This document shows positions 25,501 to 44,984 of a stretch of 64,000 bases of DNA, piece by piece. Positions within the stretch are counted from its first letter, which is position 1, and each line of letters begins with the position of its first letter. The position numbers were made by a program, and so were the translations under genes. The notes beneath the pieces are model-generated. The model searched no databases. It saw nothing but the letters and a program-made list of their open reading frames with translations, and had not been told where the DNA came from. This DNA comes from Citrus sinensis (taxonomy: Eukaryota; Streptophyta; Magnoliopsida; Sapindales; Rutaceae), in the NCBI RefSeq assembly GCF_022201045.2, contig NC_068556.1, positions 4,690,001-4,754,000 of the forward strand. Reading direction: 5' to 3'.

Positions 25501-27966
25501 TTATGTGCTAAACAACCAAGGTAATATAGCTCCCTTGAATCATAATTGCATTGCCTTAATCCCCAAAGTAGTTAAGCCTAGGAAAGTCACTGACTTTAGA
25601 CTTATCAGCTTGTGTAATGTAATTTACAGGATAGTTACTAAAACCATTGCAAACAAGCTAAAACCTATCTTAGCCCAAATCATTTCCCCTACATAAAATG
25701 CATTCATTCCCCGCAGACTCATTACCGACAATATCATAATAGGCTATGAATGCCTTCACAAAATTAAGTATTGTAAAGGAAAGAAGAATGACAAAGTAGC
25801 TCTGAAGTTAGATATTAGTAAAGCTTATAACCGAGTTGAATATGGATTTTTGAAAGAAATAATGAGGAGAATGAGGTTTCCAAGAAGGTGGATAGAGTTA
25901 ATCATGCAATGTATCACTACTGCATCCTTCTCTGAGCTTATTAATGGAACTTATAAGGGCTTAATCCAACCTCAAAAGGGTCTGAGGTAGGGTTGCCCGT
26001 TATCTCCTTACTTGTTTATCATTTGCGCAAAAGTTTTTCTAATCTGTTGATGCAGGCAAAAAAAAGGAAGATTATTCAAGGCCTGAAATTCAGCAAAGAC
26101 TTAACCATATCTAATTTACTTTTTGCTGAAGATAGCATGATTTTTGCAAAAACATCCGTAGAAAGCTGCAAGCATCTAAAGGCCATCCTTAAATGTTATG
26201 CTCTAGCCTCATGACAAGTCTTCAATTATGACAAGTCTTCCATGTTCTTTAGTGGAAAATTTCTAGGAAAACAAGTTGAAGCAATAAGAGACATATTCCA
26301 GTTCAAAGTGGTTTCGAGGCATGAGAAGTATCTTGGTCTTCTATCCATGATCGGGAGGAAAAAAATGGAGTTCTTTCATGAAATAAAGCTTAAAGTAGGA
26401 AGCAAAATTGCAAGTTGGCAATATAAGTTCTTATCTAGTGGAGGCAAAGAGGTGCTTTTTAAAGTGGTGGCACAAGTTATCCCGGCTTATGCCATGAGTG
26501 TGTTTCGAATCCCAGTTGGCATTTGTGATGATATCTAGAGAACAATGGCCAGATTTTGGTGGGGCTCTAAAAAAGACAGGAAAGGGATGCTTTGGGCAAA
26601 ATGGGAGAAGCTGAGCTGTGCAAAGACCAGAGGAGGACTAGGATTCAGAGATCTCACTAACTTTAACCAGGCTCTAGGAGCCAAGCAGGGGTGGAGGCTA
26701 TTGCAGTATCCTAATTCGTTAGTAGCTAAGGTTTTACAAGCAATATACTATAAGCAAACTGATTTCCTTCATGCCAAGGCTGGTTGCAACCCCTCATTCA
26801 TTTGGAGGAGCATATTGTGGGGTAGACAAATCTTACACAAAGGGGTTAGATGGAGGTTGGAAACAGAGAAAAAGTGCAGATCTTCAAAGATAATTGGATT
26901 CCTAAACCAATGAGCTTTAAACCAGTCTTTCCATCAACTCTTCATAAGGAAGCTCAAGTTGCCGAAGTGATTGGTCCGGAAAACCAATGGAATGAAGGTC
27001 TAATCCGTCAGCATTTCTCAAGAGAAGATGCAGAGGCAATGCTTAAAATTCCACTGCCAAAGGAAGATAAGGATGATGAAGTGCTATGGCACTTTGACAG
27101 GAAAGGGCTTTATTATGTGAAAATTAGCTATCGAATAGCCCTTCAACTAAAGTTTTATAATTCCCCAAGCTATTCCAATAATGTATCCAATGCTGGAATG
27201 ATCTGTGGACCTTAAATCTACCTGAGAAAATCAAAATCTTCTTGTGGAGAGCAGTGAGGAATCTGTTGCCAACAATAGAGAACCTTTAGAAAAAGAAGAT
27301 CTTGCCAACCTTAGTGTGCCAAATTTGTAAACGAGATGTATAAACTGTTACACATGCACTATTACAGTGCAAAGGCCCTCAAAAAATGTGGAGGCAAATT
27401 TCCTTTACAGTAGAATTTCAAGATATCACACATCAGGATATCTTAGGCATGATACAGGAGTTAGGGAGGAATTTGTCAAGAACTCAAATGGAGTTATTGG
27501 TGGCGTATTGGTGGGTGGCTTGGACTGAAAGGAATAAAATGATCTTTGAAGGCAAGAAACTGAATCCTTTAGTGGCGGTATCCAAAACTGAGGTAGTGGT
27601 GGAAGCTTTCAAGAGGGTTAAAGAGCCTGGGAAAACATCTGTTGTTTCAAAGCCAAATGAGCTTAAGAAGCAGTGGGATCCTCCCCCTAGCGGCATTTAT
27701 AAGCTTAATGTCGATGCAACCAAACAAGCTGAAGCTCAGATAGCTAGACTGGGAGTTGTAATGAGAGATTCCAATAGTAGAGTAGTGATGACAGTTGCTT
27801 TTAGAGGAGAGGTAAGATTCTCGAAAGCTGAAGCAATGGAATGGGGTATACAGGCTGCAATACAAGCAAAAATGCACTCTGTAATTGTGGAGACAGATTG
27901 CCTAGAAGTGGCTAACTTAGTCGACAACTTCACAGGTGAAAACTCTAAATTTGTAATTAGGCCGAC
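22515..27966 (+). mobile_element. L1-type LINE (plant RNase H-bearing L1 clade), decayed and 3'-truncated
   Basis: ORF1 region 22515-23960: a DUF4283 RNA-binding-like domain (NVFLFKFDTEEDKKIVLTGG, 22740-22815), then a zinc-knuckle remnant (YERLPDFCFCFG near 23125-23160). ORF2 starts at 24016 (MKTLSWNVRGLGNP). It runs through an APE-type endonuclease (CFGDFNEILH near 24415, RLDRFF, then SDHSP near 24680), reverse transcriptase (ISLCNVIYR, KLDISKAY, GCPLSPYL, LLFAEDSMIF at about 25600-26150), the zf-RVT region (26545-26830) and an RNase H domain (KLNVDATKQ..., ETDCLEVANLV, 27700-27930). Many stops and frameshifts interrupt both ORFs, for example a TGA at 24057 where the family has Arg (CGA). 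The RNase H domain breaks off at about 27960, so the true 3' end and A-tail are missing. Confidence 0.93.
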
Positions 27967-28560
27967 CTTTTTTTTTTTGTTGTGTTTAGTTAACTAATTC
28001 AGGTACTCACCTGGGTGCTATTTATTTTGCCGGTCTCTTTCCTTTCCCTCTCCTGCTTGACTTCTCGCTTGTGCTTGGTGACCTTTCATGTCAACTCTTT
28101 TTCATACTGTGTGAACGCTACCGCAATCGCATCATTCACTTCCGCGACAGACAACAATCAAGCCATAGTGATATTCAATTAAAACGTTAATGTGGCAAAG
28201 TGTTTGTAGACATACAAGTATTTGACTAACCACCGCCCTGATGATCTGATGATTACCAACAACTTGAAAAAGAAAATTAACCTCAACAGTCAACATAGAC
28301 GAGATGAAGGTGATGCTGAAACAAGCAGCTTCCAACTGCAAATTACACAGACTACTATGAACCAACTTGATAACACTGTAACTTACCACTACAATGTCAT
28401 ATGTTGAGGAAAGCTCTTGGAACAAGTCCTCTAATGACAAAAAACCAAAATGGTTTCTCAATTTCACGGGGCACAGTCTGCAAAGTATACAAGAGATTTG
28501 CTCAAGTTCATTTAATCCATTCAACGGTAATCTTTACGACAATATCTAACCAGAGAACAG
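27967..28560 (-). other. Unresolved minus-strand gene-like segment next to the LINE break
   Basis: A run of 12 T at 27968-27979 could be an A-tail of something inserted in minus orientation. Upstream of it on that strand are short stretches with splice-like borders: an acceptor after a pyrimidine-poor tract near 28483, a donor GTAAG near 28385, and an acceptor CAG near 28343. Short open pieces follow (for example SVAEVNDAIAVAFTQYEKEL near 28085-28150). I do not recognise a protein family. It may be a decayed host gene fragment, or the 3' remnant of whatever removed the LINE end. Confidence 0.3.
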
Positions 28561-30990: not shown

Positions 30991-32125
30991 TGTTAACATA
31001 TATGTTTCCATAATATTGATTTTGATGATAACAAATAAGTTTAAGAATTATTAATCTTTTAAGCTCAAATTATTTAATATTCTTTTTAAATAAATCATTA
31101 TTTTCACATTATAAATGTTTTGTATTTAATGGAAAAATGATTTTATGAAATTGATTGTTTTTATTCTTTTTAAATAATAAATCATTATTTTCACATTATA
31201 AATGTTTCATATTTAATGGAAAAATGATTTTATGAAATTGGTTGTTTTTCAAAGTTTATGGTTTAATTGAAAGCATTTTGAAAACTTTGAAACAAACAAG
31301 TATTGCTTGAAATTTTGGTGAAGGACTTATTTGAAAAGTGTCATAGCATTTTGGGCTATAACATAATTTCAGAAAGTTTTGGGATTAACAAAGTATTATT
31401 TAGAAATTCTGAAATTGGACCTATTTGCAAAGTTTCATAACGTTTTGGGCTATAGTACAGTTTTGGGGTCAAACTGTAATTTTGAAAAATAGTACACTGT
31501 GTAGGTTACTGTAGCAATCACTGTAGCAAACGGCTAACCGTTTATTTAAAAATGGCTAACCGATAATTTCCAGAAAGCATGTTCTGCAAAGTATTGTTAA
31601 AATGATGATTCTGGAAACTAACGGTGAACCGTTTACTGAAAACGGTTAACCGATTATTTCCAGATTGCTAACCTTGAACCGTTTAGTAAGAACGGTTAAA
31701 CCAAATTTGTTTCGCAGGTCTCTGGAAATTAACGGCGAAAGGGTAAGCCTAAACGGCTAACCGTTTATTTGAAAATTGGCCCAACGGTAACTTTGACCAG
31801 CCTAAACGGTTAACCGTTAATGGTTAACGGCGAACCGTTTTCGTGCAGACAATCTATAACGGCTAGTTTTTCAGCTCCAACTATAAATAAGCTCAATCCA
31901 ATTCAAACAAGAAGAATTCCAACGATCATCATTGAGCAAAATATAGAGAATACAACTTTCATTGAGCTTTAAATCTTTGTATTCATCTCATTCATTCACA
32001 CATTGAGCTTTCACTTGTGATCAAACACATTGTGTGAGAGAGATTCATTTGTAATCTTTTTTGTAAAATCAAGTTAAAAGATTGTAAGTGTTGGGATACA
32101 CTTGGGTTAAGAGATTGGAGATAAT

Positions 32126-33508
32126 TGTTGTGCAAATTTTAATGTACTCGCAAGCGCACGAATCTGTTGTAGTATAGATTAATGGTGACGAGTGTCGATC
32201 CCACGAGGAGGTGGATTTTAATTGTGTAGAATTAATTTTGTGAATGGGTGATTGGATTTGTGGTGGAAATGATTGGAATATGCTAAAACTTAAATTAAAA
32301 TGGAGAGAATAAATTCTAAAATTGGTATTGAAATGGTGAGAATAAATTGAAGAGAATTATATTGAAATGACGTACTTGGGTATCTGGATCCGTATCAACA
32401 TGCATCATGGGCTAAATATTCCTTATTAATGCCAATTAAATCATGAGGGGGGAATCCACACCTCATGAACCACGCTCTAATCAATATGGTGCTAAGGGTT
32501 TATCGTGCCAAATAATAATAACCTTATACTAGAGAGCCGGTGTAACCAAGGCGGTATCTAGACAAGATTAGTATTATTTGTCGACGAGAAGTCAAAACAT
32601 CCACAAAAACTAGAGGGGAAGAGAAAATAAATTTACCAAATTAAGCCCATGACACATGTTGAGACTTCACCTTCAACCCAAGCTTGAAAGAAAATTAGCC
32701 ACTCATAATTGAACTAGGGGCAAAATAGGAATTTATTAAAATACAAAGAAAATACAAGATGGAGAGGGAATTACAGAAAACAGAGTCCAAAAATGGATTC
32801 AGAGATATCAAATTAGGGGGGGGAGGCCCCCTTTTTATAGATACATGGAGTAAATCATGGCCATCGGATTAAAAACAATTTGGACGCTCAGGATTGCGCC
32901 ACGTCATCAGTCAACAGTCCACGGTTTGACCACGCGGATGAACAGTAACACGGTTTGACCCGACTTTGAACAGTAACGCGGTTTGACCCGGATGAACAGT
33001 AACGCGGTTTGGTTGAAAATAATCCTGTGTGATACATGCACCGTACGCGAGATTTTTCGTCCACTGATATGCTGCCACGTCACCATCAACAGTACATAAG
33101 AATTTTGGTCCAACAGGATCGTGACACCTCATCAGTCAATGCCACATCATCGGTCAATGCCACGTCATCATCCGTCTATGTGAACAGTGTCGTGAACAGT
33201 AACGTATACAGTACCGTACACGTGAATAGTACCGTACATGTGAATAGTGTCATTTTTCCTTTTATGCTCCTCCTAAGGTTTTCGACCGTCCTGAGTTCAA
33301 AAGTGATGTCCGTTTTGCCGTCTGATCTCTCCTTTATTGTGAAATGACTATAATGCCCCTAAAATACATAAAATACTTAATTAAAATAAAACACATGTAA
33401 TTAAATCACAAGAAGGTTAAATATATAAAAGTAAGGGTTGTTAGTAAGACTTAAAATGTAAAATGACGGTTTTCTCCTTTATAAATATGCATTTTCTAAC
33501 ACTCAACA
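32126..33508 (-). repeat. 3' LTR of the Athila-like element
   Basis: This is 1,383 bp, almost identical to the copy at 43284-44667. Positions 32895-33260 are rich in repeated words: GAACAGTAAC(G/A)CGGTTTGACC-type units and CCACGTCA motifs (bZIP core TGACGTGG) at about 32899, 33074 and 33169. Open frames in this region are present identically in both LTRs and have no recognised domain, so they are not called as genes. Confidence 0.97.
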
Positions 33509-35436
33509 CACCCCCCAACCAGCTTATTGCTAGTCCCTAGCAAATAAAGCGAAAACAAAATTCAAATTCAAAATAATTTTTTTTTTGTTTTAATAGAAAC
33601 ACTCGTATTTATTCCATCAGATTAATGATAGCAATCAAATAAAAGTATAAGCATTATCTCCAGTCTAAAGCAACATCACACCCACATCAACTATCCACAT
33701 GAATTAGCCTAGTAGACTTTGTTTTAGCTACTCTCAAGAATGACATGTCAAACCCCAAAATCTCACTGGAAGTAGTGACACTCTCACAAATAAATTAATC
33801 CCAATAAAAATAGTCACTCCAATGAATGGTAATTGAGAGAGAAAATAATAAAGAAGTGATATCACATGCTCTCACCAAGATGAAATAAATATGCCCTCAG
33901 CTTAGAAATAATACGATCTCAAGTCAAATAAAATGTTAGTCAACCCACTTTATTTATCTTTTTTTTTTTTAATTATGCATCACTACATCTTTTTAGCCCA
34001 TATAACTAGCTTCTACTTCAAACTATAGTTCCCTAAAATCAAGAAGGACTTTTATTAGGACGAAACGTAGGCTAGGGACATGGCTAACAAAGAAGGAAAA
34101 TAAAGAAAACAAAGTGTATGTTTGAGAAAAATGCAGAGAATTTTTTTTTTTTTTTTTTGGAAGTTGCAAGGTGGATTTCACCTATTTTTATTCTTTTGAA
34201 ACAACAACTTTTGTTTTTGTTTTTATTATTTTTTTTTTTTTGCTTTTATTTGGCATAACTTCACTGAACAAAATAATTATTTACATTTTCTCAAACATAA
34301 ATAGGTGATGGAACTTATAAGATATCGGGTAATACTCCAAATCGGAGTGGGTCAAGATAATAAGTTGACAAAGAAAAGGTTTTTTTTTTTTTTTTTTTAA
34401 AGGCTCAAAAGGGTTAACTATGGATATTAAATAAAAGGGATGGCTTGAAAGGCTCAAACGGATCAAAGATGGCCTCTCCATCGTCTTTTAGGGCTCTAAA
34501 TAATCTTCCATATCTACTAGTTAGATGGGCCTCCAAATGTAGCAACACACTCTTTTTTCTTTTTCTTTTTTCTCTTTTTTTTTATTTTACAATTTTTTTT
34601 TTAAGGGTTAACTCAAAAGTAATTTAGAGATCGTGTATAAAATAATAAACTGCTAAGCTGTATAAAGAGTGGGCAAAAGGGTTATTCTCCAAGAAAAATA
34701 ATAGGCTCAAAAACTCACTTGGTACTTATTATGACATGTTCATTCCTTCAAGCAACTCACATTTGTCTCCGACATCAACATGTAAAGTAGCAAACATAGC
34801 GTAACATCACTTAAGACCAAAGATAATACAAATACTAAAATTTGAAATTAATCATGTCATCCAATGTTAAAACAAATCACACATTTTTTTTTTAAACATC
34901 ATTCTACCCCCCAACCTATTCTAAACATGAAAGGAAAATATGCATGCAGAAATGTGAAAATGATGTATAAAAACTAATTAGAAAAGTTACACGTAAAATG
35001 ATAGAAAACGAAAATGATTTTTTTTTTTTTAAAAGAAGATGCGTTTCTAGAGGAACTACACTCCATATTCAGCCATCTTCGACTCAAAAGTTGGAAAATG
35101 TATATTTATAGAGGAGAAATTAAAGAAGAAAAATAAACATAAACACATAATAAAGAAAAAGAAAATGTCTGAATTTTTTTTTTTTTGAATTTTTTTTTTC
35201 AAACAATGAAGATGCGTTTCTAGAGTAACTACACTCCATATTCAGCCATCTTCAACACAAAAAGTTAGCAACAGTTAGTTTCTACAACAAAAAATTAGTA
35301 AAAACTTAACCAAAATTTCACAATTGTCGACTATTCCCTCCCCCCAACCAGAACGAAACATTGTCCTCAATGTTTGAAATGAAAGAAGTAGAGTTTAGAA
35401 GACATCACCTGGGTGGTGCAACACAGAAGAAAATAT
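33509..35436 (-). other. Non-coding 3' internal region of the Athila-like element
   Basis: About 1.9 kb lies between the LOG-like ORF and the 3' LTR. It has many long T or A runs and the polypurine tract at its LTR end. A segment of about 63 bp containing GAAGATGCGTTTCTAGAG and CCATATTCAGCCATCTTC is present twice, at about 35035-35098 and 35208-35270, in direct orientation. No coding region is supported. A noncoding stretch before the 3' LTR is known in Athila-type elements. Confidence 0.7.
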
Positions 35437-36144
35437 TTACAGGCGGAGAGTTAAATCTAATTTGTACTTCTTACTGCGGCTACTGTTACCATCATTATTT
35501 GGACGCTCCAACACAAAGGTCCAGGGGTCTGGCTCCGGTCGATAAGCTTGTAACATATCAAGTAGCTCATTAGCAGTGTGAGCACAAATAAAGAGTTTTT
35601 TCACATTAGCGGGAATGAAATAGTTTTTTATTGCATGATTAAGAAATGCGATAAAGCCATCATAAAAGTTATTGACATTTAACAAACCGATAGGTTTCTG
35701 GTGGATGTGCAGATGGGCCCAAGATGCTAGTGTGATAAGTGCCTCTAGTGTTGCAAGATCTCCTGGAAGGAAAATAAAAGCATCAGCATAATTAAGCATT
35801 TCAGTTATTCTTTCTTGCATACCTGAGACGACTAACTCTTCTCCAGTTGATGAGTCAGACGAACTGCCCAATGGTTTTAGGACTCTTGGGATGATGCCTA
35901 ACACTTGACTTCCTCTGATAAAAGCTGCTTCTGAGACCATTTTTGATAACCCTCGATTACCTCCTCCATACACCAAGTGTAATTTTCTCGCTGCTATGCT
36001 TCGACCAAGATCTATGGCTGCCTCAACGAACTCTTTATGTTTGCCATAGGTAAAACCGGAAAGCACACAAATGTTCTTGAATTGTCTATTGGGAGTAGCT
36101 GCCATTGCGATACTTCTAAAAAACAATTTGTGAGTGCTTGACAA
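35437..36144 (-). CDS. LOG-like (LONELY GUY, cytokinin riboside 5'-monophosphate phosphoribohydrolase family) protein carried by the retrotransposon
   Basis: A single open frame of 235 codons (a second possible start, MAATPNRQ, is 13 codons in) has the LOG layout from end to end. It contains FKNICVLSG near residue 22 (LOG: KRICVFCGS), HLVYGGGNRGL near 56, VLGIIPRVL near 82, MQERITEML near 109, DAFIFLPG near 122, SWAHLHIHQKPIGLLNV near 140 and a closing YRPEPDP segment. LOG enzymes release active cytokinin bases from nucleotide precursors in the cytosol. Plant LOG genes have several introns; this copy has none, which suggests capture of a spliced transcript. The region matching the catalytic PGGxGTxxE signature is diverged, so activity cannot be assumed. 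It lies inside the element, in the same orientation as gag-pol, in the env-like position. Confidence 0.85.
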   Translation of the reverse strand: MSSTHKLFFRSIAMAATPNRQFKNICVLSGFTYGKHKEFVEAAIDLGRSIAARKLHLVYGGGNRGLSKMVSEAAFIRGSQVLGIIPRVLKPLGSSSDSSTGEELVVSGMQERITEMLNYADAFIFLPGDLATLEALITLASWAHLHIHQKPIGLLNVNNFYDGFIAFLNHAIKNYFIPANVKKLFICAHTANELLDMLQAYRPEPDPWTFVLERPNNDGNSSRSKKYKLDLTLRL

Positions 36145-36422
36145 AAGATATCATATTTAAGAGTCTTGGTGATAGTGGGTCATGGTTGTGTATGAGGTAA
36201 TATGTCAGTGTCAAATAACGCGTAAAGCACGTGCTCGCAAGTCAAAAAGAAAACAGTAAAAAGGAAAAAGCAAACAGTAATAAAATTATTAAAGACAATA
36301 ATGCAAACAATAAGACAATAGTGAAATAAAATAACAATAAAGTAAAAGGATATTTACAGGTAGTTGCGACTGTGGCTCACATCTTCCTCTGGTTTTACGT
36401 CCAGAAACGGCTTGAACGCCCT

Positions 36423-36980
36423 CTATGGGTCGAGGATAGGCTTCCTATCCAGTTTTCTTATAAACTGGCAAACAGGGTCGTTTATAGTCAGATTCCCGAG
36501 ACTATATCGTGCATGCTCTTTCTGGAATAATGGCCATAACTGGAGAATCGCTCCTTGCACATATCCACTGGGATGCGTTTCAAGAGACAAAATGATATCA
36601 TCCAATGACTCCTTATTCAAGCCATCCCTAATGAATTGAATCTTATCTTCCCTGTTATCAGACACCATTCCTAAAGAACATGGGTTTTTATTGCAACTCA
36701 TTCTGGCACACTTATGACAAGCAACAGAAATTCTTCGAGCTCGTCGTTTTCTTGCATAATTTCCTTTACCACAACCAGGCATGTATGCAATAAATTTTGG
36801 AGGTAACTCACCTGCCGATCGTACTTTAGCCTCGATTAACCAACGGATGTCAGCAGGTATGTTATTCCTCATGAGTAATCGCATGCGTTCGGACCGAGCT
36901 TTATAGATCGTAAGGAGGGCATTCTGAGGAAGTGAAGGGAATCGCTTGTGAAGCTTCGCTAGAATCTCGTTTCTGTCCAT
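36423..36980 (-). CDS. Cysteine-rich basic protein resembling carla-/vitivirus nucleic-acid-binding proteins, in the retrotransposon
   Basis: The 185-codon open frame has a helical N-terminal half (MDRNEILAKLHKRFPSLPQN...). A basic patch with a zinc-ribbon-like cysteine cluster follows: YARKRRARRI at about residues 75-84, then CHKC...C....C (C-x2-C-x4-C-x4-C) at about 88-101, then a conserved-looking IQFIRDG near 114-120. In Betaflexiviridae, nucleic-acid-binding proteins (carlavirus cysteine-rich protein, vitivirus p10) have the same order: an A-R/K-R-R-R-A basic motif, a short cysteine cluster, then a 'FI/V..G' segment. Those proteins bind RNA and often suppress RNA silencing. The likeness is by eye and from memory. 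Alternatives are a plant zinc-finger gene captured by the element or an element-specific protein. It is placed between the integrase region and the LOG-like ORF. Confidence 0.65.
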   Translation of the reverse strand: MDRNEILAKLHKRFPSLPQNALLTIYKARSERMRLLMRNNIPADIRWLIEAKVRSAGELPPKFIAYMPGCGKGNYARKRRARRISVACHKCARMSCNKNPCSLGMVSDNREDKIQFIRDGLNKESLDDIILSLETHPSGYVQGAILQLWPLFQKEHARYSLGNLTINDPVCQFIRKLDRKPILDP

Positions 36981-37121
36981 ACCTTCGCCTCAGAATATCA
37001 GTTATTATGGGAAACTGAAGTAACCGACTTGATTGTCACGGAGTACCGTTATCCGCCACTTCACCGGGGTAACAAACTAAAGCACACAAATAGAAAAACA
37101 AATTAAAACACACAAAGAAAA

Positions 37122-37397
37122 TTAAAATCGTCCTCTTATTGAATTTACCTCAAGCTCCAACTGGATGTCGTAAACACTTCTCTCAATGTCTCTGAGTTGG
37201 TGTTCTAAACCCTCAACATAGGCTACTAACTCTGGTGGTTGTAGAGTCCAAATGCGATGTGTTTTACAAAATTGAATCTGTCTTTTGAGATGAGTTTTGA
37301 CACGTTGAAGTGGTTTAAGAATGTTCAGGAGGAACGGTCTAAGTATGAGACTCATGATTAACAATGATAAGAGAAAACTTAATGGTAAAATAAACAC
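37122..37397 (-). CDS. Small membrane-anchored helical ORF of the retrotransposon
   Basis: The 91-codon frame begins with a strongly hydrophobic stretch (MFILPLSFLLSLLIMSLILRP, residues 1-21) like a signal anchor. A basic linker follows, and then a Glu/Leu-rich segment (VEGLEHQLRDIERSVYDIQ, about 60-80) likely to form a coiled coil. It is the first ORF after the integrase region, about 90 bp away, where Athila-type elements can encode env-like proteins with transmembrane segments. No homologue is recognised, and the length is short for an env-like protein. It may be a remnant or an exon. Confidence 0.5.
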   Translation of the reverse strand: MFILPLSFLLSLLIMSLILRPFLLNILKPLQRVKTHLKRQIQFCKTHRIWTLQPPELVAYVEGLEHQLRDIERSVYDIQLELEVNSIRGRF

Positions 37398-37485
37398 ACT
37401 TATGCAAAAACAATTTCAATTAGCAAAAGAATAATAATAAAAAGAAAGAAAGAAAAATCAAATCAACGAAAAGAGAAAAAAAAAA

Positions 37486-40400
37486 TCAATTCAAATTTGG
37501 TGGGTCACTCAAATTTATTTCGGTGTCTTCTTCATGTGGTTGGTACTCTAGATATGGCTTTAATCTTTGACCATTAACTTTAAACGTGACACCATTCTTT
37601 GGGTCTTTAATTTCAATTGCCCCATGTGGAAAAACAGTATGAACAATAAATGGGCCAGACCAACGAGAGCGTAACTTACCTGGGAATAGGTGCAAGCGAG
37701 AATTGAATAAAAGCACTTTCTGACCTGGAGTGAACGATTTTCTCATAATTTGCTTATCATGGAAGACTTTCATTCGTTGCTTGTAAATCTTGTCATTTTC
37801 GTACGCGTCATTGCGAATTTCTTCAAGTTCTGCCAGCTGTAATCTTCTTTCTGAGCTGGCTTGCTGCATGTCAAAATTGAATTTCTTGATGGCCCAATAT
37901 GCACGATGCTCGAGTTCCACAGGTAGGTGGCAAGCTTTTCCATACACTAGCCTGTAGGGTGACATCCCAATCGGGGTCTTGAAAGCCGTTCTATATGCCC
38001 ATAATGCATCATCAAGTCTTAATGACCAATCTTTCCTGTCTGGCCTCACCGTCTTTTCTAATATGTGCTTTATTTCTCGATTGGAGATCTCAACTTGGCC
38101 ACTGGTTTGCGGATGATACGGGGTCGCCACTTTGTGTGTGATTGAATACTTTGTCAAAAGTGCTTTGAATGCTTTGTTACAAAAGTGGGCACCAGCATCA
38201 CTGATTATTGCTCGAGGGAATCCAAAGCGTGAAACAATGTTACTTTTCAAAAATGCTATCACCACCTTGTGATCATTGGTCCTACATGGAATAGCTTCTA
38301 CCCATTTTGATACATAGTCAACAGCAACCAATATGTATTGATGACCAAAAGACGGGGGAAAAGGTCCCATGAAGTCGATACCCCATACGTCAAAAATCTC
38401 AACCACTAAAATTGGATTTAGTGGCATCATGTTCCTTCGCATAATGCTCCCCATTCGTTGACACCTATCACATGAAGAACAAAAAGTGTAAGCGTCTCGA
38501 AATAGTGTTGGCCAATAGAAACCACATTGTAAAACTTTAGTCGCTGTTTTCTTAGCACTGAAATGGCCTCCACAAGCTTGTTCATGGCAGAATGAAAGGA
38601 TATTCTGAATTTCATTTTCTGGGACACATCGTCTAACAATTTGGTCTGCACAATACTTGAACAAATACGGGTCATCCCAAAAGAAATTCTTTATTTCCGC
38701 AAAGAATTTGATCTTGTCTTGCTTGGTCCAATGCTCTGGAAGTTTACCTGTAACAAGATAATTAACTATATCAGCATACCAAGGTAATACTTCCACACTC
38801 ATTAATTGTTCATCTGGAAATGACTCATTTAATGGTAATTGTTCTATTATTGTGTCAAAATGGAGACGAGAGAGATGGTCCGCCACAACATTTTCTGACC
38901 CTTTCTTATCTTTGAATTCCAAGTCAAATTCCTGCAAAAGTAACACCCAACGAATTAGTCTAGCTTTTGCATCTTTCTTTGTGAGAAGATATTTAAGAGC
39001 AGCATGATCTGTGAACACAATTATTTTACAACCAATGAGATAAGATCGAAATTTTTCTAATGCAAACACTACTGCTAGCATTTCTTTTTCAGTAGTTGAA
39101 TAGTTCAACTGTGCATCATTTAATGTCATACTAGCATAGTAAATAACATGGGGAATTCAATCAACTCTTTGTCCTAATACTGCTCCTACTGCATAATCAG
39201 ATGCATCACACATGAGCTCAAATGGTAATTTCCAGTTCGGGGCCTGAATGATGGGTGATGATGTCAACAACTGTTTTAATTTTTCAAACGCCATAAGACA
39301 TGAATCATTAAAGATAAAAGGTACATCCTTAGCAAGTAAATTGCATAAGGGTCTAGAAACTTTGCTAAAATCTTTAATGAAACGTCTATAGAAACCAGCA
39401 TGCCCAAGGAAAGATCTTACTTCTCTGACTGTTTTGGGTGGAGGAAGATTAGAAATGAGATCCACCTTGGCTTTGTCAACCTCAATACCTTTACTCGAAA
39501 TGATGTGACCGAGAACAATACCTTGTTTTACCATAAAATGACATTTCTCCCAATTTAAGACCAAGTTCTTCTCGATACATCTCTGCAGAACTAGTGTTAG
39601 ATGATGTAAACATTGATCAAATGAATCACCAAAGACAGAAAAGTCATCCATAAAGACTTCAAGAAATCGTTCAACCATATCAGAAAAAATGCTTAGCATG
39701 CATCGTTGAAATGTAGCAGGTGCATTACATAATCCAAATGGCATTCTCCTATATGCAAATGTGCCAAAAGGGCAAGTGAAAGTAGTTTTCTCTTGATCTT
39801 TTGGTGCTATGGGAATCTGATTATATCCTGAGTAGCCATCTAGAAAGCAATAAAATTCATGGCCTGCTAATCTATCAAGCATTTGATCAATAAATGGTAA
39901 AGGAAAATGGTCTTTACGTGTGACAGAATTCAACTTTCTATAATCAATGCATACACGCCATCCTGTAGTTACTCTAGTGGGTATCAATTCATTATCAGCA
40001 TTCGTAACTACTGTGACTCCTGACTTTTTGGGGACAACTTGTACAGGACTGACCCATGAACTATCAGAAATTGGATAAATGATACCTGCATCTAATAGCT
40101 TAAGGACTTCAGTTCTAACAACTTCTTTCATGTTAGGATTTAACCGACGTTGCATCTCCCTAGTAGTTTTAGCATTTTCATCAAGGTGAATGTAATGCAT
40201 GCAGTCTACTGGGTTTATACCTTTAATGTCTGCTATGGTCCATCCTAATGCCCCTTTGTGCTCTTTCAAAACATCCAACAACTTACCTTTTTGTTCGTCA
40301 TTGAGAGATGCTGAGATGATTACCGGTAGAGTACTTTCTTCTCCCAAAAACGCATATTCCAAAGTGTTGGGCAATGGTTTGAGCTCGAGTTTCGGTGGTG

Positions 40401-41649
40401 ATTCTGATGATGGAATGAGTTGCTTCTCTGATGGTGCTAGTTGCTCAACTCTTGACTTCCATTTATTAGTGTCCATAGATGGTGCTGAGTCAAGCAGGGC
40501 ATTGACCTCATCAACCGATCTGTCAATATCAAAATCAAAACCAAAGTGAGTTAAACATGTTTGTAAAGGATCATCACTAAGGTTTGAAAGAAAAGTGTTA
40601 TCAACTAATGCTTCGATTAAATCCACATCAACAATTCCATCATCTGCACTGTGAGGTTGTTTGGCAATGTTGAAGATGTTCAGCTCCATAGTCATGTTGC
40701 CGAAGGACAACTGCATATTTCCAGTTCTACATTGAATGTGAGCATCCGCAGTTGCCAAGAAAGGTCGGCCTAGAATAATGGGGATGTGCTTCCTTGAATC
40801 CTGTATTGGTTGAGTGTCAATTACAATGAAGTCAACAGGAAAATAAAATTTGTCTACCTGGATAAGCACGTCCTCCACAATACCACGAGGTATTTTTGTG
40901 GACCGATCTGCAAGTTGTAACACCACTGGAGTTGGGTGTAATTCTCCCAGTCCAAGTTTCACAAACACTGAATAAGGTAACAGATTTACACTAGCTCCTA
41001 AATCCAACAAAGCATTCTCAATTGTGTGGTTCCCTATACTACATGAGATAGTGGGGGAGCCTGGGTCTTTGCATTTTAAAGGAATTTTATGTTGGAGTAT
41101 AGAACTAACGTTTTCTGTTAAAAATGCCTTCTTTTGAACATGCATGTTTCTCTTTTTAGTACAAAGGTCTTTAAGAAACTTGGCATAAGATGGAACTTGT
41201 TTAATAGCATCAAGCAAAGGGATGTTAACACTTACCTGTTTGAAGATTTCAAGAATCTCACCTGTGGATTTTCCCTTTTTTCCTTTGGCTAACCTCTGAG
41301 GAAATAGAGCTTTGGGAACATATTCTTGTGGGTTGGTTTCTTCTTTCTCCTCCGGTGATGAGTCATCAACATTCACAGGTACAATTTGATTTTCTTTTGT
41401 CACTGGCATCTCCACCTTGTTGTCGACTTCTTTTCCTTTTCGCAAGGTCATTACTGCTTTGACCTCTCCATGCTGTTGTGGTGAACTGGTACTTGCTTCA
41501 TGTACTCCTTTAGGATTAGGCACTGGTTGACTTGGAAACTTACCTTTCTCAACGGTCATTGCCAAGGTCTGAACTGAAGAAGCAAGTTGTCCCACCATCT
41601 TCTCGAGGCTTGAAACTGATTGGGCTTGTGAATTGAAGCCTGCTCTCAA
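37486..41649 (-). mobile_element. pol region of the Athila-like element
   Basis: Domains in order on the minus strand are: an aspartic protease (ALLDLGASVNLLPYSVF, near 41000), reverse transcriptase (WRVCIDYRKLN, LPFIDQMLDRLAG, PFGLCNAPATFQRCM, VFMDDFSVFG, about 40000-39600), RNase H (LPFELMCDASDYAVGAVLG, then [10 protein letters not shown]), and integrase with a HHCC-type zinc finger (H..H..C..C near 38600-38450) plus the catalytic core ([39 protein letters not shown]). The sequence types as Ty3 of the Athila/Tat branch. It looks close to whole and is counted in the roughly four interruptions of gag-pol. Confidence 0.95.
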
Positions 41650-42932
41650 CTCATTTCGTAGTCCATCAATGGTGCGATTCTGTTGCTCAATCGTGGAGTG
41701 AGTAACATTCTTGAAATTTTGGAATGCATCCTCCCATGGTCTGGGTTGAGAGTAGTTCTGGTTCTGATTGTATGGTCTGAATGGGGGCTAAGAGGCTTGA
41801 GGAACTTGAGGAATTTGTTGCATTGGTGGAGCTGGAGCTGCTGGTCCATTCTGTTGGAATCCTTGAGACCATGAAAAATTGGGGTGGTCTCTCCATCCAG
41901 GGTTATATGTGTTGGAGTATGGGTTGTAATTTGATGGCTTTCTCATTACACCTATGGCATTGGCTTGATCTGAGTATGAGTCCTGGTCATGTGGTTCTGT
42001 TGATTTAGCAGTCGATAACGATGCTATTTGTCGAGCAAGACCTTCAACCATCTCCTTGACTTCTTTGATTCCCGAAGTTGACTCGCCAATTTGAACCTCA
42101 TTTACTCCCTTAATTCGTCTAGTATTCCTGAGTGATCGACTCCGTTGTTGGGAATTATCCGCTTGTCGCTGGAAGAATTCCCAAATCTCTGATGCACTTT
42201 TTGACATTAGCTCTCCTCCACTTGTCGCCATTAGCCATTCTTGCACATTTGGCAATAATCCCTCCAAAAGTATTGGCATTGGTGCCATTTCTCGTACCCA
42301 TGATGTGGACACTTCAAGAGTAGCCCATTGAATCGCTCCCATGTTTCGAAAAATTGCTCGTCCTCTCTCTGGGTAAACTCCGAGATTTCCCTGCGAATAG
42401 CATTGGTTTTATGCACTAGGAAATATTTATTTAAAAATTTTGTAACCATTTGTTCCCATGATGAAATGCTATTGGCAGGTAAAGTATTTAACCATGAACG
42501 AGCTCTATCCTTTAAAGAAAATGGGAATAGTCTAAGTTTGACATCATCGTCTGAAAAATTTTCATATTTAAAAGTTTGACAAATGGCATGAAAATCATTC
42601 AGATGATTATATGGATCCTCATTTTCTAGGCCATAAAATGTGGGGAGACAATTTAGCACACTAGGTTTTAATTCGAAACTCCTAGCAGCTACATTTGGGT
42701 ATCTTATGCATGATGTACTCAAATTAGCTAAGGGACTGAAGTAGTCCTTAAATGGCCTCTCTTGTGGTTGCAAATCCATTTTATTTTTAACGTGTTTGTG
42801 TGTGCGAAGTGTTTTTTCTAATTCAAGGTCTATAGGTTCAAGATTAGGTAATAATGACCTACGACCATGCATGCAAAATAAATAAAATAAAAATAAAGAT
42901 GCAAACAAAACAAAAAATAAAGATGGGAACAA
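41650..42932 (-). mobile_element. gag region of the Athila-like element
   Basis: The start has a hydrophobic leader-like stretch before the gag homology. The core matches Ty3-type retrotransposon gag (PTFYGLENEDPYNHLNDFHAIC-like, FPFSLKDRARSWLNTLP, WEQMVTKFLNKYF), followed by a Pro/Gln/Asn-rich tail (YNPYSNTYNPGWRDHPNFSW), all typical of Athila gag. The region is largely open. Confidence 0.88.
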
Positions 42933-43283
42933 AACAAATAAAAATAAAGAAGAGGGAGAAATTACGATACTAACCTTATTGCGCTATTACAACCTTTCTA
43001 TAAAAATACACAAAAATAAATACGTGAAAGAAATTAACTAAAAATTAAATTAATAAGATAAACAAAAAAAAAATTACAAAGAAAAATAAATGGAAAATTA
43101 AATTACAAAATTTTAAAGAAGAGAAAAAGAAAAGAAATACTAACCTTTAAATGTAGATTCACTTTTTTTTCTTTTTTTTTTAATAATAAAAAAAATACAA
43201 GAAAACAAATAAAAGAAATTATTCACAAAAATTAATTCTATGAATTAAAATTACTTACCTCCCCGGCAACGGCGCCAAAAACT
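42933..43283 (-). other. Leader and primer binding site of the Athila-like element
   Basis: A purine/AT-rich leader of about 330 bp separates the 5' LTR from gag. The primer binding site at about 43262-43279 reads TGGCGCCGTTGCCGGGG on the minus strand, complementary to the 3' end of tRNA-Asp, and lies a few bases from the LTR edge at 43284. Confidence 0.85.
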
Positions 43284-44667
43284 TGTTGTGCAAATTTTAA
43301 TGTACTCGCAAGCGCACGAATCTGTTGTAGTATAGATTAATGGTGACGAGTGTCGATCCCACGAGGAGGTGGATTTTAATTGTGTAGAATTAATTTTGTG
43401 AATGGGTGATTGGATTTGTGGTGGAAATGATTGGAATATGCTAAAACTTAAATTAAAATGGAGAGAATAAATTCTAAAATTGGTATTGAAATGGTGAGAA
43501 TAAATTGAAGAGAATTATATTGAAATGACGTACTTGGGTATCTGGATCCGTATCAACATGCATCATGGGCTAAATATTCCTTATTAATGCCAATTAAATC
43601 ATGAGGGGGGAATCCACACCTCATGAACCACGCTCTAATCAATATGGTGCTAAGGGCTTATCGTGCCAAATAATAATAACCTTATACTAGAGAGCCGGTG
43701 TAACCAAGGCGGTATCTAGACAAGATTAGTATTATTTGTCGACGAGAAGTCAAAACATCCACAAAAACTAGAGGGGAAGAGAAAATAAATTTACCAAATT
43801 AAGCCCATGACACATGTTGAGACTTCACCTTCAACCCAAGCTTGAAAGAAAATTAGCCACTCATAATTGAACTAGGGGCAAAATAGGAATTTATTAAAAT
43901 ACAAAGAAAATACAAGATGGAGAGGGAATTACAGAAAACAGAGTCCAAAAATGGATTCAGAGATATCAAATTAGGGGGGGGGAGGCCCCCTTTTTATAGA
44001 TACATGGAGTAAATCATGGCCATCGGATTAAAAACAATTTGGACGCTCAGGATTGCGCCACGTCATCAGTCAACAGTCCACGGTTTGACCACGCGGATGA
44101 ACAGTAACACGGTTTGACCCGACTTTGAACAGTAACGCGGTTTGACCCGGATGAACAGTAACGCGGTTTGGTTGAAAATAATCCTGTGTGATACATGCAC
44201 CGTACGCGAGATTTTTCGTCCACTGATATGCTGCCACGTCACCATCAACAGTACATAAGAATTTTGGTCCAACAGGATCGTGACACCTCATCAGTCAATG
44301 CCACATCATCGGTCAATGCCACGTCATCATCCGTCTATGTGAACAGTGTCGTGAACAGTAACGTATACAGTACCGTACACGTGAATAGTACCGTACATGT
44401 GAATAGTGTCATTTTTCCTTTTATGCTCCTCCTAAGGTTTTCGACCGTCCTGAGTTCAAAAGTGATGTCCGTTTTGCCGTCTGATCTCTCCTTTATTGTG
44501 AAATGACTATAATGCCCCTAAAATACATAAAATACTTAATTAAAATAAAACACATGTAATTAAATCACAAGAAGGTTAAATATATAAAAGTAAGGGTTGT
44601 TAGTAAGACTTAAAATGTAAAATGACGGTTTTCTCCTTTATAAATATGCATTTTCTAACACTCAACA
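43284..44667 (-). repeat. 5' LTR of the Athila-like element
   Basis: This is 1,384 bp and is the near-identical partner of 32126-33508. It carries the promoter for the element on the minus strand. A TATAAA motif at about 43993-43998 (read as TATAAAAAGG on the minus strand) is a plausible TATA box, downstream of the CCACGTCA/CGGTTTGACC motif cluster. Confidence 0.96.
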
Positions 44668-44984
44668 ATAATCTCTTGTTGTAAAGGTCCATTGACACCT
44701 TGGAAGTCAATTGTAAGCGTTTGAAGCCTTGGGAGGCTAGCTTAGTGAAATCCTCAAGCCCGGTGTGCTTGGAGGCGTGGACGTAGGCGGGGATTGCCGA
44801 ACCACGTAAAAATCCTTGAGTTTGCTTTCTCTTCCCTTACTCATTCATTATTGTGCTTTTATTGAATTTATTGTTTTCGAATTTATTAAGGCATTAGATT
44901 AAATTGTTGTGTGGTTTGCCTAGGATAATTTTAAAATCCCAATTCACCCCCCCTCTTGGGTTGCCTAGTTAGTATTTCATCATT

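What the first reader, a model, noticed from the sequence alone, without database searches (positions are those of the whole stretch)
35437..37397. Three-gene accessory cassette in a very young Athila-like retrotransposon: membrane ORF, virus-type cysteine-rich ORF and LOG-like ORF
Seen: three separate ORFs (91, 185 and 235 codons) lie in tandem on the element's sense strand between integrase and the polypurine tract. Known: Athila elements can have an env-like gene in this position, but not, to my knowledge, a cytokinin-enzyme homologue next to a plant-virus-type nucleic-acid-binding protein. Inference: the element has recruited genes that might counter small-RNA silencing and alter the hormone state of the host cell. 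The near-identical LTRs show that the cassette moved recently.
Basis: partly seen in the sequence, partly recalled or inferred. Interest (0 to 1): 0.95.

Follow-up and report, generated by a model that had tools for sequence, protein, structure and literature searches.

The report
Retrotransposon with virus-like accessory gene cassette
A very young Citrus-type jumping gene carries three extra, evolutionarily preserved genes: a small coiled protein, a zinc-finger protein related to plant-virus proteins, and a hormone-enzyme look-alike that seems to have lost its active site but kept an apparent gene-repression tag.

Summary
A 12.5-kb Athila-like Ty3/gypsy element (32126-44667, minus strand; LTRs differ by one mismatch and one gap) carries three sense ORFs after integrase: a 77-aa ORF1 (not a 91-aa membrane protein), a 185-aa cysteine-rich protein (CRP) and a 222-aa LOG-like protein.

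They are genes, not chance frames. The trio, in the same order, occurs in three diverged subfamilies of this genome. Window-to-subfamily dN/dS is about 0.18-0.20 (LOG), 0.20-0.24 (CRP) and 0.3 (ORF1); neutral simulations rarely or never go so low. Nine of ten CRP relatives tested pass a Pfam cut-off for carla-/flexivirus nucleic-acid-binding proteins; the window's own CRP does not.

The hormone reading fails as stated. In every subfamily copy examined that covers the site, PGGxGTxxE is broken (here PGDLATLEA; catalytic Glu is Ala), while the fold stays under purifying selection: apparently a preserved pseudoenzyme. It ends in a conserved LDLTLRL tail, a match to the EAR (TOPLESS-binding) consensus.

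A LOG domain in Citrus gypsy elements was already in print; the searches made showed no mention of the CRP, the dead site or the tail. Function (nuclear/anti-defence effectors versus particle proteins) is inferred, not shown.

The parts
32126..33508 (-). 3' LTR of the element
   Evidence: pairwise alignment with 5' LTR, 1 mismatch + 1 gap
43283..44667 (-). 5' LTR
32121..32125 (.). target-site duplication ATAAT (left copy)
   Evidence: flank and LTR-end sequence
44668..44672 (.). target-site duplication ATAAT (right copy)
   Evidence: flank sequence
43260..43277 (-). primer binding site TGGCGCCGTTGCCGGGGA, 5 bases inside the 5' LTR; tRNA-Asp type by recall
   Evidence: sequence shown; tRNA assignment recalled
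41788..42872 (-). gag (PF03732), split over two frames in this copy
37486..41598 (-). pol: protease, RT, RNase H, integrase; one internal in-frame stop in this copy
37122..37355 (-).
   Evidence: omega about 0.3, 1-5 of 300 neutral simulations as low
36423..36980 (-). CRP: 185-aa cysteine-rich protein, basic stretch + C-x2-C-x4-C-x4-C, related to flexivirus nucleic-acid-binding proteins
   Evidence: omega 0.13-0.24 over 30 copies
35437..36105 (-). LOG-like protein, 222 aa, probable pseudoenzyme
   Evidence: PF03641 1.1e-27; motif PGDLATLEA; omega 0.12-0.24 over 24 copies
35440..35472 (-). C-terminal tail KKYKLDLTLRL of the LOG-like protein, containing LxLxL (EAR-type consensus)
   Evidence: consensus from PMC9956375 (abstract start in listing) and PMC7446885 (passages)
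33509..35436 (-). 1.9-kb A/T-rich stretch between the LOG-like stop and the 3' LTR, with a G-rich polypurine tract next to the LTR
   Evidence: no ORF of 80 aa or more from ATG in it

Best explanation
The region is the 3' accessory module of an Athila-like Ty3/gypsy retrotransposon family of a Citrus-type genome. Shown: three genes (ORF1, CRP, LOG-like) kept in fixed order in three subfamilies, with clear purifying selection on CRP and LOG-like and probable selection on ORF1. Two of the subfamilies look recently active (near-identical copies). Shown: the LOG-like protein lost key active-site residues before the subfamilies parted and has been conserved since. Inferred from that: it is kept for a job that needs the fold but very probably not LOG catalysis. 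Inferred further: the proteins act on the host cell or on the element's own RNA/DNA in trans. The CRP (basic stretch plus zinc finger, related to viral proteins some of which suppress silencing) binds nucleic acid and blunts silencing or helps packaging. The pseudo-LOG is a non-catalytic adaptor whose C-terminal LDLTLRL tail engages the TOPLESS co-repressor, to direct or to titrate it. ORF1 is a small oligomerising helper.
For: Cassette: LOG in 7 of 8 CRP-selected and CRP in 29 of 30 LOG-selected subfamily-1 loci (each set holds the window copy once); ORF1 match in 26 of 30 and LOG match in 26 of 30 CRP-selected subfamily-2 loci; all three open in subfamily-3 locus L069. Selection: median omega, window against subfamily 2, LOG 0.179 (24 copies), CRP 0.203 (30), ORF1 0.335 (24); LOG and CRP below all 300 neutral simulations in 4 of 4 comparisons, ORF1 below all but 1-5 of 300 in 4 of 4; third-position share of differences 0.51 LOG and 0.50 CRP against 0.53 integrase. 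Dead site: Asp116, Ala118 and Ala122 in 37 of the 37 subfamily-1 loci that have LOG (of 38; window copy counted twice); in the 24 of 30 subfamily-2 loci that cover the site no Glu122, no Gly116, no Gly118; same in L069 and L072. Alanine substitution of these residues nearly abolished CgLOG activity (PMC4979012 passages). Two host LOG exons of the same genome keep GGFGTLEE and GYGTLEE (L070, L071). Tail: 10 or 11 of 11 residues kept against 3 to 5 of 17 in the linker before it, in 4 subfamily-2 copies; 85 of 120 listed proteins have LxLxL in the last 12 residues, 8 of the rest an altered tail, 27 end otherwise. CRP: 35 of 36 aligned members match PF01623 and 34 of 36 PF05515 at E<=0.1, best 3.7e-08 and 1.1e-08.
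Against: No expression, binding or activity data. ORF1's signal is modest (third-position share 0.39; one comparison lay inside the simulated range). Omega between subfamilies 2 and 3 is higher: CRP 0.30-0.38, LOG 0.21-0.26. The window's own CRP is below both Pfam cut-offs (16.3 of 20.9, 14.5 of 23). In subfamily 3 (L069) the tail is not significantly more conserved than the linker (9/11 against 8/17, p=0.115). [quoted passage not shown] Some plant LOGs act mainly as phosphohydrolases (PMC11593424 passages), so some other activity is not excluded. AlphaFold models of CRP and LOG-like were poor (mean pLDDT 54.7 and 42.7), so no fold-level support.
Confidence: 0.55

Rival explanations
1. The accessory proteins are particle or replication proteins (env-like/capsid helpers): CRP is an RNA chaperone for packaging, ORF1 and the LOG fold are structural oligomers; no effect on host signalling.
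For: Position between integrase and PPT is the usual place of sense aORFs (PMC7264820, part 1 of 3 read); CRP is strongly conserved across genera (mean column identity 71% over 36 rows), as for a core gene; ORF1 has a coiled-coil-like C-terminal half by eye (no predictor run).
Against: Does not account for the conserved LxLxL tail beside a variable linker; no particle protein of this kind is known to me (recall).
Confidence: 0.25
2. The pseudo-LOG is a dominant-negative or sensor version of host LOG: it dimerises with host LOGs or binds cytokinin nucleotides and lowers active cytokinin.
For: LOGs work as dimers with a shared active site (PMC4979012 passages); the fold family is clear; Met96, Arg99, Thr119, Glu121 and Trp129 are kept in the window copy.
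Against: Only 39-41% identity to two Arabidopsis LOGs, so heterodimers are doubtful; phosphate-loop glycines lost.
Confidence: 0.12
3. One reading: an active cytokinin-activating enzyme that changes the hormone state of the host cell.
For: PF03641/TIGR00730 matches; UniRef names of some Citrus copies say cytokinin riboside 5'-monophosphate phosphoribohydrolase (taken to be automatic).
Against: In the window copy Glu122 is Ala, Gly116 Asp, Gly118 Ala, Lys100 Ile, His97 Gln, Glu125 Thr; the first three are shared by 37 of 37 subfamily-1 loci with LOG, and Glu/Gly are absent there from 24 of 24 covering subfamily-2 loci. PDB 5zbk differs from 5zbj by Glu to Ala at this place in the printed alignments and looks like a deliberate mutant (inference).
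Confidence: 0.05
4. Passenger DNA: transduced fragments or chance frames without function.
For: The window copy has broken gag and pol frames; captured host sequence in retrotransposons is known (PMC7264820).
Against: Three subfamilies, omega 0.15-0.34 against the window, neutral simulations not reached for CRP and LOG.
Confidence: 0.03

Closest known systems
Citrus Ty3/gypsy elements with a YgdH (LOG-type) domain (PMC9289625, citing Steinbauerova et al. 2011)
   Same: Same genus and domain; section 12 read: consensus sequences of C. sinensis and C. clementina, and P. trichocarpa without the filter. The Steinbauerova paper itself was not found held.
   Different: In section 12 and the passages seen there is no mention of the active site, the CRP neighbour, ORF1 or the C-terminal tail; the terms 'carla' and 'LOG' had 0 occurrences in its main text. 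Its supplements were not seen.
Athila elements with 3' sense additional ORFs / env-like genes
   Same: Order gag-PR-RT-RH-INT-aORF, sense orientation, position before the 3' LTR.
   Different: No PF03078 (ATHILA) match at E<=1 to any of 7 translations; no transmembrane segment shared between subfamilies by eye; two of the aORFs have recognisable viral and enzyme relatives.
Carlavirus/flexivirus cysteine-rich nucleic-acid-binding proteins (PF01623, PF05515), e.g. mandarivirus CRPs of citrus
   Same: Basic stretch followed by a four-cysteine finger, PF05515 matched over about 85 residues in relatives. Mandarivirus CRPs are pathogenicity determinants and that of CYVCV suppresses silencing (PMC12172455 abstract). 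That mandarivirus CRPs belong to these Pfam families is recalled.
   Different: Encoded by an integrated retrotransposon; conserved N- and C-terminal parts outside the Pfam match.
LONELY GUY phosphoribohydrolases (AtLOG3 2a33, AtLOG8 1ydh, PaLOG 5zbj, CgLOG 5its)
   Same: Fold family; 39-41% identity to 2a33, 1ydh and 5zbj; Arg99 kept.
   Different: PGGxGTxxE lost, no intron in the ORF, extra tail with LxLxL.
Effectors with C-terminal EAR motif (HaRxL21, PMC7446885, passages)
   Same: C-terminal LxLxL in a protein of a genetic parasite of plants.
   Different: No interaction data here; the bearer is a retrotransposon pseudo-LOG.

Membership tests
Athila-lineage Ty3/gypsy retrotransposon | LTRs, TSD, gag, PR-RT-RH-INT order with integrase last | tested here: met
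Athila-lineage Ty3/gypsy retrotransposon | RT/INT falls in the Athila clade of a reference tree | not tested
   No reference element library in these tools; the Athila label rests on recall of the RT/INT sequence and of the tRNA-Asp-type PBS
Athila-lineage Ty3/gypsy retrotransposon | PF03078 ATHILA ORF (not in all Athila elements, recalled) | tested here: not met
   no match at E<=1 in 7 translations
LONELY GUY cytokinin phosphoribohydrolase | PF03641 / TIGR00730 above cut-off | tested here: met
   97.2 of 27 bits; 127.4 of 96.35 bits. The stricter NF058542 (cytokinin LOG equivalog) is not reached: 90.5 of 300 bits
LONELY GUY cytokinin phosphoribohydrolase | PGGxGTxxE with catalytic Glu | tested here: not met
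   PGDLATLEA
LONELY GUY cytokinin phosphoribohydrolase | catalytic Arg99 | tested here: met
   37 of 37 subfamily-1 loci with LOG, 21 of 23 covering subfamily-2 loci
LONELY GUY cytokinin phosphoribohydrolase | phosphoribohydrolase activity | not testable with these tools
   needs an assay
Flexivirus-type nucleic-acid-binding protein (PF05515/PF01623) | Pfam gathering score | tested here: inconclusive
   window copy below (16.3/20.9, 14.5/23); 9 of the 10 relatives I chose for pass at least one cut-off, L069 just misses both (20.8/20.9, 20.4/23)
Flexivirus-type nucleic-acid-binding protein (PF05515/PF01623) | basic stretch plus four-cysteine finger | tested here: met
   RKRRARR then C88, C91, C96, C101 in the window; columns C88 and C91 nearly invariant and C96 invariant in 36 members
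Flexivirus-type nucleic-acid-binding protein (PF05515/PF01623) | nucleic-acid binding | not testable with these tools
   needs an assay
Env-like protein | transmembrane segment in ORF1 | tested here: inconclusive
   hydrophobic stretch lies mostly upstream of the conserved ATG and is not shared; no TM predictor was run
EAR-motif repressor/adaptor | LxLxL, conserved | tested here: met
   85 of 120 listed LOG-like proteins have it in the last 12 residues, 8 have an altered tail, 27 end otherwise; present in copies of all three subfamilies
EAR-motif repressor/adaptor | binding to TOPLESS | not testable with these tools
   needs an interaction assay

The most novel reading that the evidence does not exclude
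The element runs a virus-like effector suite: a zinc-finger protein shared with positive-strand RNA viruses (gene exchange between a retrotransposon lineage and flexiviruses, in either direction) and a host- or bacteria-derived LOG turned into a catalytically dead adaptor that hijacks the TOPLESS co-repressor to blunt defence or silencing. This would be a plant retrotransposon encoding the kind of nuclear effectors otherwise known from pathogens.
Probability: 0.22. Interest if true: 0.87.

Novelty: new variant of a known kind. Interest (0 to 1): 0.62.

Why it matters
Plant LTR retrotransposons often have additional ORFs of unknown origin and role. Here two of three ORFs have recognisable relatives and measurable selection, and one carries a specific, cheaply testable claim: a LOG fold preserved without its catalytic residue, ending in an apparent co-repressor tag. 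If right, it gives a direct test of whether plant retrotransposons encode host-manipulating proteins, and points to a gene family shared between retrotransposons and plant RNA viruses. It also warns that many database 'cytokinin riboside 5'-monophosphate phosphoribohydrolase' entries of Citrus are probably transposon copies without that activity (one cluster alone, P0123, stands for 705 sequences).

Tried and rejected
Structure prediction: CRP (A1, 36 rows) gave mean pLDDT 54.7, LOG-like (A2, 32 rows, 75-97% identical to the first) 42.7; both too poor, so no fold search was run. PDB by CRP sequence: one hit at E 0.058; by CRP profile: none at E<=1. Viral contigs by the CRP alignment: 21 pattern matches, none confirmed by tblastn, so no viral sequence could be put in a tree and the direction of gene exchange is open. 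ORF1 against Pfam: SKA1 (E 0.021, below its cut-off) and, in 5 of 6 subfamily members, RDM (best E 0.0033, cut-off not shown), taken as chance. The antisense-frame omega (0.28) was dropped as a control because that frame overlaps CRP; simulations replaced it. Integrase dS was saturated (median 2.7, undefined for some copies), so its omega of 0.086 is only indicative. Within-subfamily pN/pS is weak evidence: the loci were chosen by protein similarity. I could not list LOG-like relatives outside Citrus: one search found 597 but lists 120, in which every protein with a species name is Citrus; likewise one search lists 120 of 260. Splicing and expression could not be examined.
Full report
WHAT IS THERE. 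The window lies in a 299.7-Mb genome held in 11 contigs. It is not named; the closest named proteins are from Citrus x changshan-huyou (97-98% for the LOG-like protein), so I take it as Citrus or a near relative. On the minus strand lies a complete LTR retrotransposon, 32126-44667, with 1.38-kb LTRs that differ by one mismatch and one gap, and a 5-bp flanking repeat ATAAT. At a recalled plant rate of about 1.3e-8 per site and year that is an insertion of the order of tens of thousands of years. Behind the 5' LTR stands GTTTT-TGGCGCCGTTGCCGGGGA, which I recall as the tRNA-Asp-type primer site common in this lineage. gag (PF03732), protease, RT, RNase H and integrase follow in the Ty3/gypsy order. 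This copy is not intact: gag is split over two frames and pol has one in-frame stop. 'Athila-like' rests on recall of the RT/INT sequence; no reference tree was possible.

THE THREE ORFS. After integrase (stop at 37486) come ORF1, CRP and LOG-like, all sense. In the other subfamilies only the part from the ATG at 37355 is shared, giving 77 aa. A profile of six such proteins finds 96 proteins at E<=0.01, 36 of them exactly 77 aa long and 7 of them 91 aa. The hydrophobic leader is mostly outside the conserved protein. CRP has 185 aa, LOG-like 222 aa from its ATG. A 1.9-kb A/T-rich stretch separates LOG-like from the 3' LTR.

OTHER COPIES. Searches of the whole genome score only 150 candidates each: 149 of 150 CRP copies and 148 of 150 LOG copies closest to the window are free of stops, out of 1884 and 2113 first-look candidates. 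Of the 38 fetched subfamily-1 loci (two of them, L001 and L009, are the window copy itself), LOG is present in 7 of 8 chosen by CRP and CRP in 29 of 30 chosen by LOG. A query from a diverged Citrus protein brought out two further subfamilies. Subfamily 2 is old and mostly broken: of 30 loci, ORF1 matches in 26 and LOG in 26; 28 CRPs are in one piece, 7 of these without a stop. Subfamily 3 looks young: 19 of the 150 rows share one score (288.7 bits, E 1.7e-84) and have no stop. I fetched two (L069, L072): in L069 ORF1 is 56%, CRP 68% and LOG 74% identical to the window's, all open; L072, cut shorter, shows the same for CRP and LOG. In the loci where they match, the order ORF1-CRP-LOG is the same.

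SELECTION. Nei-Gojobori omega between the window copy and subfamily 2, medians: LOG 0.179 (24 copies, dS 0.82), CRP 0.203 (30 copies, dS 1.18), ORF1 0.335 (24 copies, dS 1.07; measured on the 91-codon frame); an integrase piece gave 0.086 (23 copies) but with saturated dS. Copies with at least 60 aligned codons were used, broken ones included. Against subfamily 3 (L069): LOG 0.201, CRP 0.243, ORF1 0.316. Between subfamilies 2 and 3 it is higher: LOG 0.21-0.26 (4 copies), CRP 0.30-0.38 (5 copies). Simulated neutral change, rejecting only stops, gives a median near 0.66: LOG and CRP lie below all 300 simulations in 4 of 4 comparisons, ORF1 (77-codon frame) below all but 1 to 5 of 300 in 4 of 4; in a first run of 200 the 91-codon frame of ORF1 lay inside the simulated range (0.331, minimum 0.21). 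Differences fall at third positions in 51% (LOG), 50% (CRP), 53% (integrase) and 39% (ORF1). So CRP and LOG-like are under clear purifying selection and ORF1 probably. Within subfamily 1 pN/pS is 0.27 (CRP, loci chosen by LOG), 0.25 (LOG, loci chosen by CRP) and 0.5 (ORF1), weak but in line.

CRP. The window's CRP scores below Pfam's cut-offs for Carla_C4 (16.3 of 20.9 bits) and Viral_NABP (14.5 of 23). Its relatives do better: of 36 aligned members, 35 match Carla_C4 and 34 match Viral_NABP at E<=0.1, best 3.7e-08 and 1.1e-08, and of ten that I chose for nine pass at least one cut-off, with Viral_NABP matched over about 85 residues. The protein search found 260 relatives (120 listed): besides Citrus, the named ones are from Xanthoceras, Acer and Populus, at 60-69% identity over 98% of the length. 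Their genomic setting was not visible to me; that they are retrotransposon genes there too is inferred. On that inference CRP is a core gene of a lineage in at least Sapindales and Malpighiales. The shared part is a basic stretch and a four-cysteine finger. Mandarivirus CRPs are pathogenicity determinants, one of them a silencing suppressor (PMC12172455, abstract). Whether Pfam's viral models contain retrotransposon sequences I could not check; direction of transfer is open.

LOG-LIKE PROTEIN. It matches PF03641 (1.1e-27), TIGR00730 (4.9e-37) and solved plant and bacterial LOGs (2a33, 1.9e-44), but stays far under the cut-off of the specific cytokinin-LOG model NF058542 (90.5 of 300 bits). It is 41% identical to AtLOG3 and to PaLOG alike and sits on a long branch, so capture was old, from a plant cDNA or a bacterium. 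The ORF has no intron, while the host exon in L070 reads as if an intron ends just before GGFGTLEE. PMC4979012 (passages) names Arg99 and Glu122 as catalytic, Gly116, Ala117, Gly118, Thr119 and Ser19 as phosphate binders, Met96, Lys100 and Glu121 around adenine and Met96, His97, Lys100, Glu125 and Trp129 at the prenyl site, and reports almost complete loss of activity on alanine substitution of the AMP-binding and catalytic residues tested, Ser19 excepted. PMC8234997 (passages) also calls Arg and Glu fully conserved and critical. By motif spacing the window has Arg99, Thr119, Met96, Glu121 and Trp129 but Asp116, Ala118, Ile100, Gln97, Thr125 and Ala122. Among the 37 subfamily-1 loci with LOG all have Asp116, Ala118 and Ala122; 24 of 30 subfamily-2 loci cover the site, with no Gly116, no Gly118 and no Glu122 among them; of the 120 listed proteins 109 have Ala122, none has Glu122, Gly116 or Gly118. 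Subfamily 3 reads PGDLATFEA in both loci. Prenyl-site residues vary among LOGs (MmLOG, same paper), so the argument rests on Glu122 and the two glycines. The active site was thus lost before the subfamilies parted, and selection on the rest continued: a maintained pseudoenzyme. No assay supports this yet, and some plant LOGs act mainly as phosphohydrolases (PMC11593424, passages), so another activity is not excluded.

THE TAIL. The LOG-like protein ends in KKYKLDLTLRL. The one host LOG exon read to its stop (L070) has no such tail. It contains LxLxL, one of the two EAR consensus forms (PMC9956375, start of abstract in listing). Between subfamilies 1 and 2 the 11 tail residues are kept in 10 or 11 of 11 while the 17-residue linker before it is kept in 3 to 5 of 17 (Fisher p 0.00007 to 0.002 in four copies), with 3 to 5 synonymous changes inside the tail; against subfamily 3 the contrast is not significant (9/11 against 8/17, p=0.115). 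Of 120 listed proteins 85 have LxLxL in the last 12 residues, 8 have an altered tail and 27 end otherwise; as a crude yardstick 6 of 120 CRP-family proteins have it there. In HaRxL21 a C-terminal LMLTL binds TOPLESS, but an EAR motif alone is not sufficient (PMC7446885 passages). I therefore offer TOPLESS binding as the likeliest specific role, at perhaps one in three.

WHAT IS KNOWN. The LOG (YgdH) domain in Citrus sinensis and C. clementina gypsy consensuses, and in P. trichocarpa without the filter, is in print (PMC9289625 section 12), citing a 2011 paper not held here. For the CRP, PMC searches 'Carla_C4'+'retrotransposon' (0 papers), PF05515, PF01623, 'viral NABP' and 'carlavirus nucleic acid binding' with 'retrotransposon' (0 papers with two of the five), and broader ones (20 listed of 126 and of 41) showed nothing in the titles and abstract starts listed. 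Of those lists I opened PMC7264820 (part 1 of 3) and PMC11728184 (passages). No search was made for the tail or the dead site in retrotransposons as such beyond 'YgdH', 'lonely guy' and 'lysine decarboxylase' with 'retrotransposon'. Most subscription papers are not covered.

VERDICT. Real, conserved and more interesting than a hormone gene: a preserved, probably dead enzyme beside a virus-type protein in a recently mobile element. Function unproved. New variant of a known kind (LTR retrotransposon with 3' additional ORFs).

Noticed in passing
G000 C1:7550644/7561788, C2:2333060/2344205, C3:30623840/30634964, C8:14243636/14254803: Pairs of near-identical CRP copies on one strand 11.12-11.17 kb apart, close to one element minus one LTR (about 11.16 kb): looks like tandem elements sharing an LTR.
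   Followed up: no
L013, L016, L038 and other rows: The open frame around LOG-like varies between copies (for example 237, 247, 267, 283, 313 or 334 codons), i.e. an in-frame extension in many copies.
   Followed up: no
P0005, P0087, P0118, P0171, P0193, P0203: Annotated Citrus proteins that fuse CRP with LOG-like parts; could be spliced readings or annotation artefacts.
   Followed up: no
window 25298-27997: Several plus-strand ORFs that look like a broken non-LTR (LINE-type) reverse transcriptase and RNase H, by recall of motifs.
   Followed up: no
[quoted passage not shown]
   Followed up: partly
L069 against subfamily 2: Subfamilies 3 and 2 are close in CRP (dS 0.27-0.35) but farther in LOG (dS 0.54-0.62): a hint of recombination between subfamilies within the cassette.
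   Followed up: no
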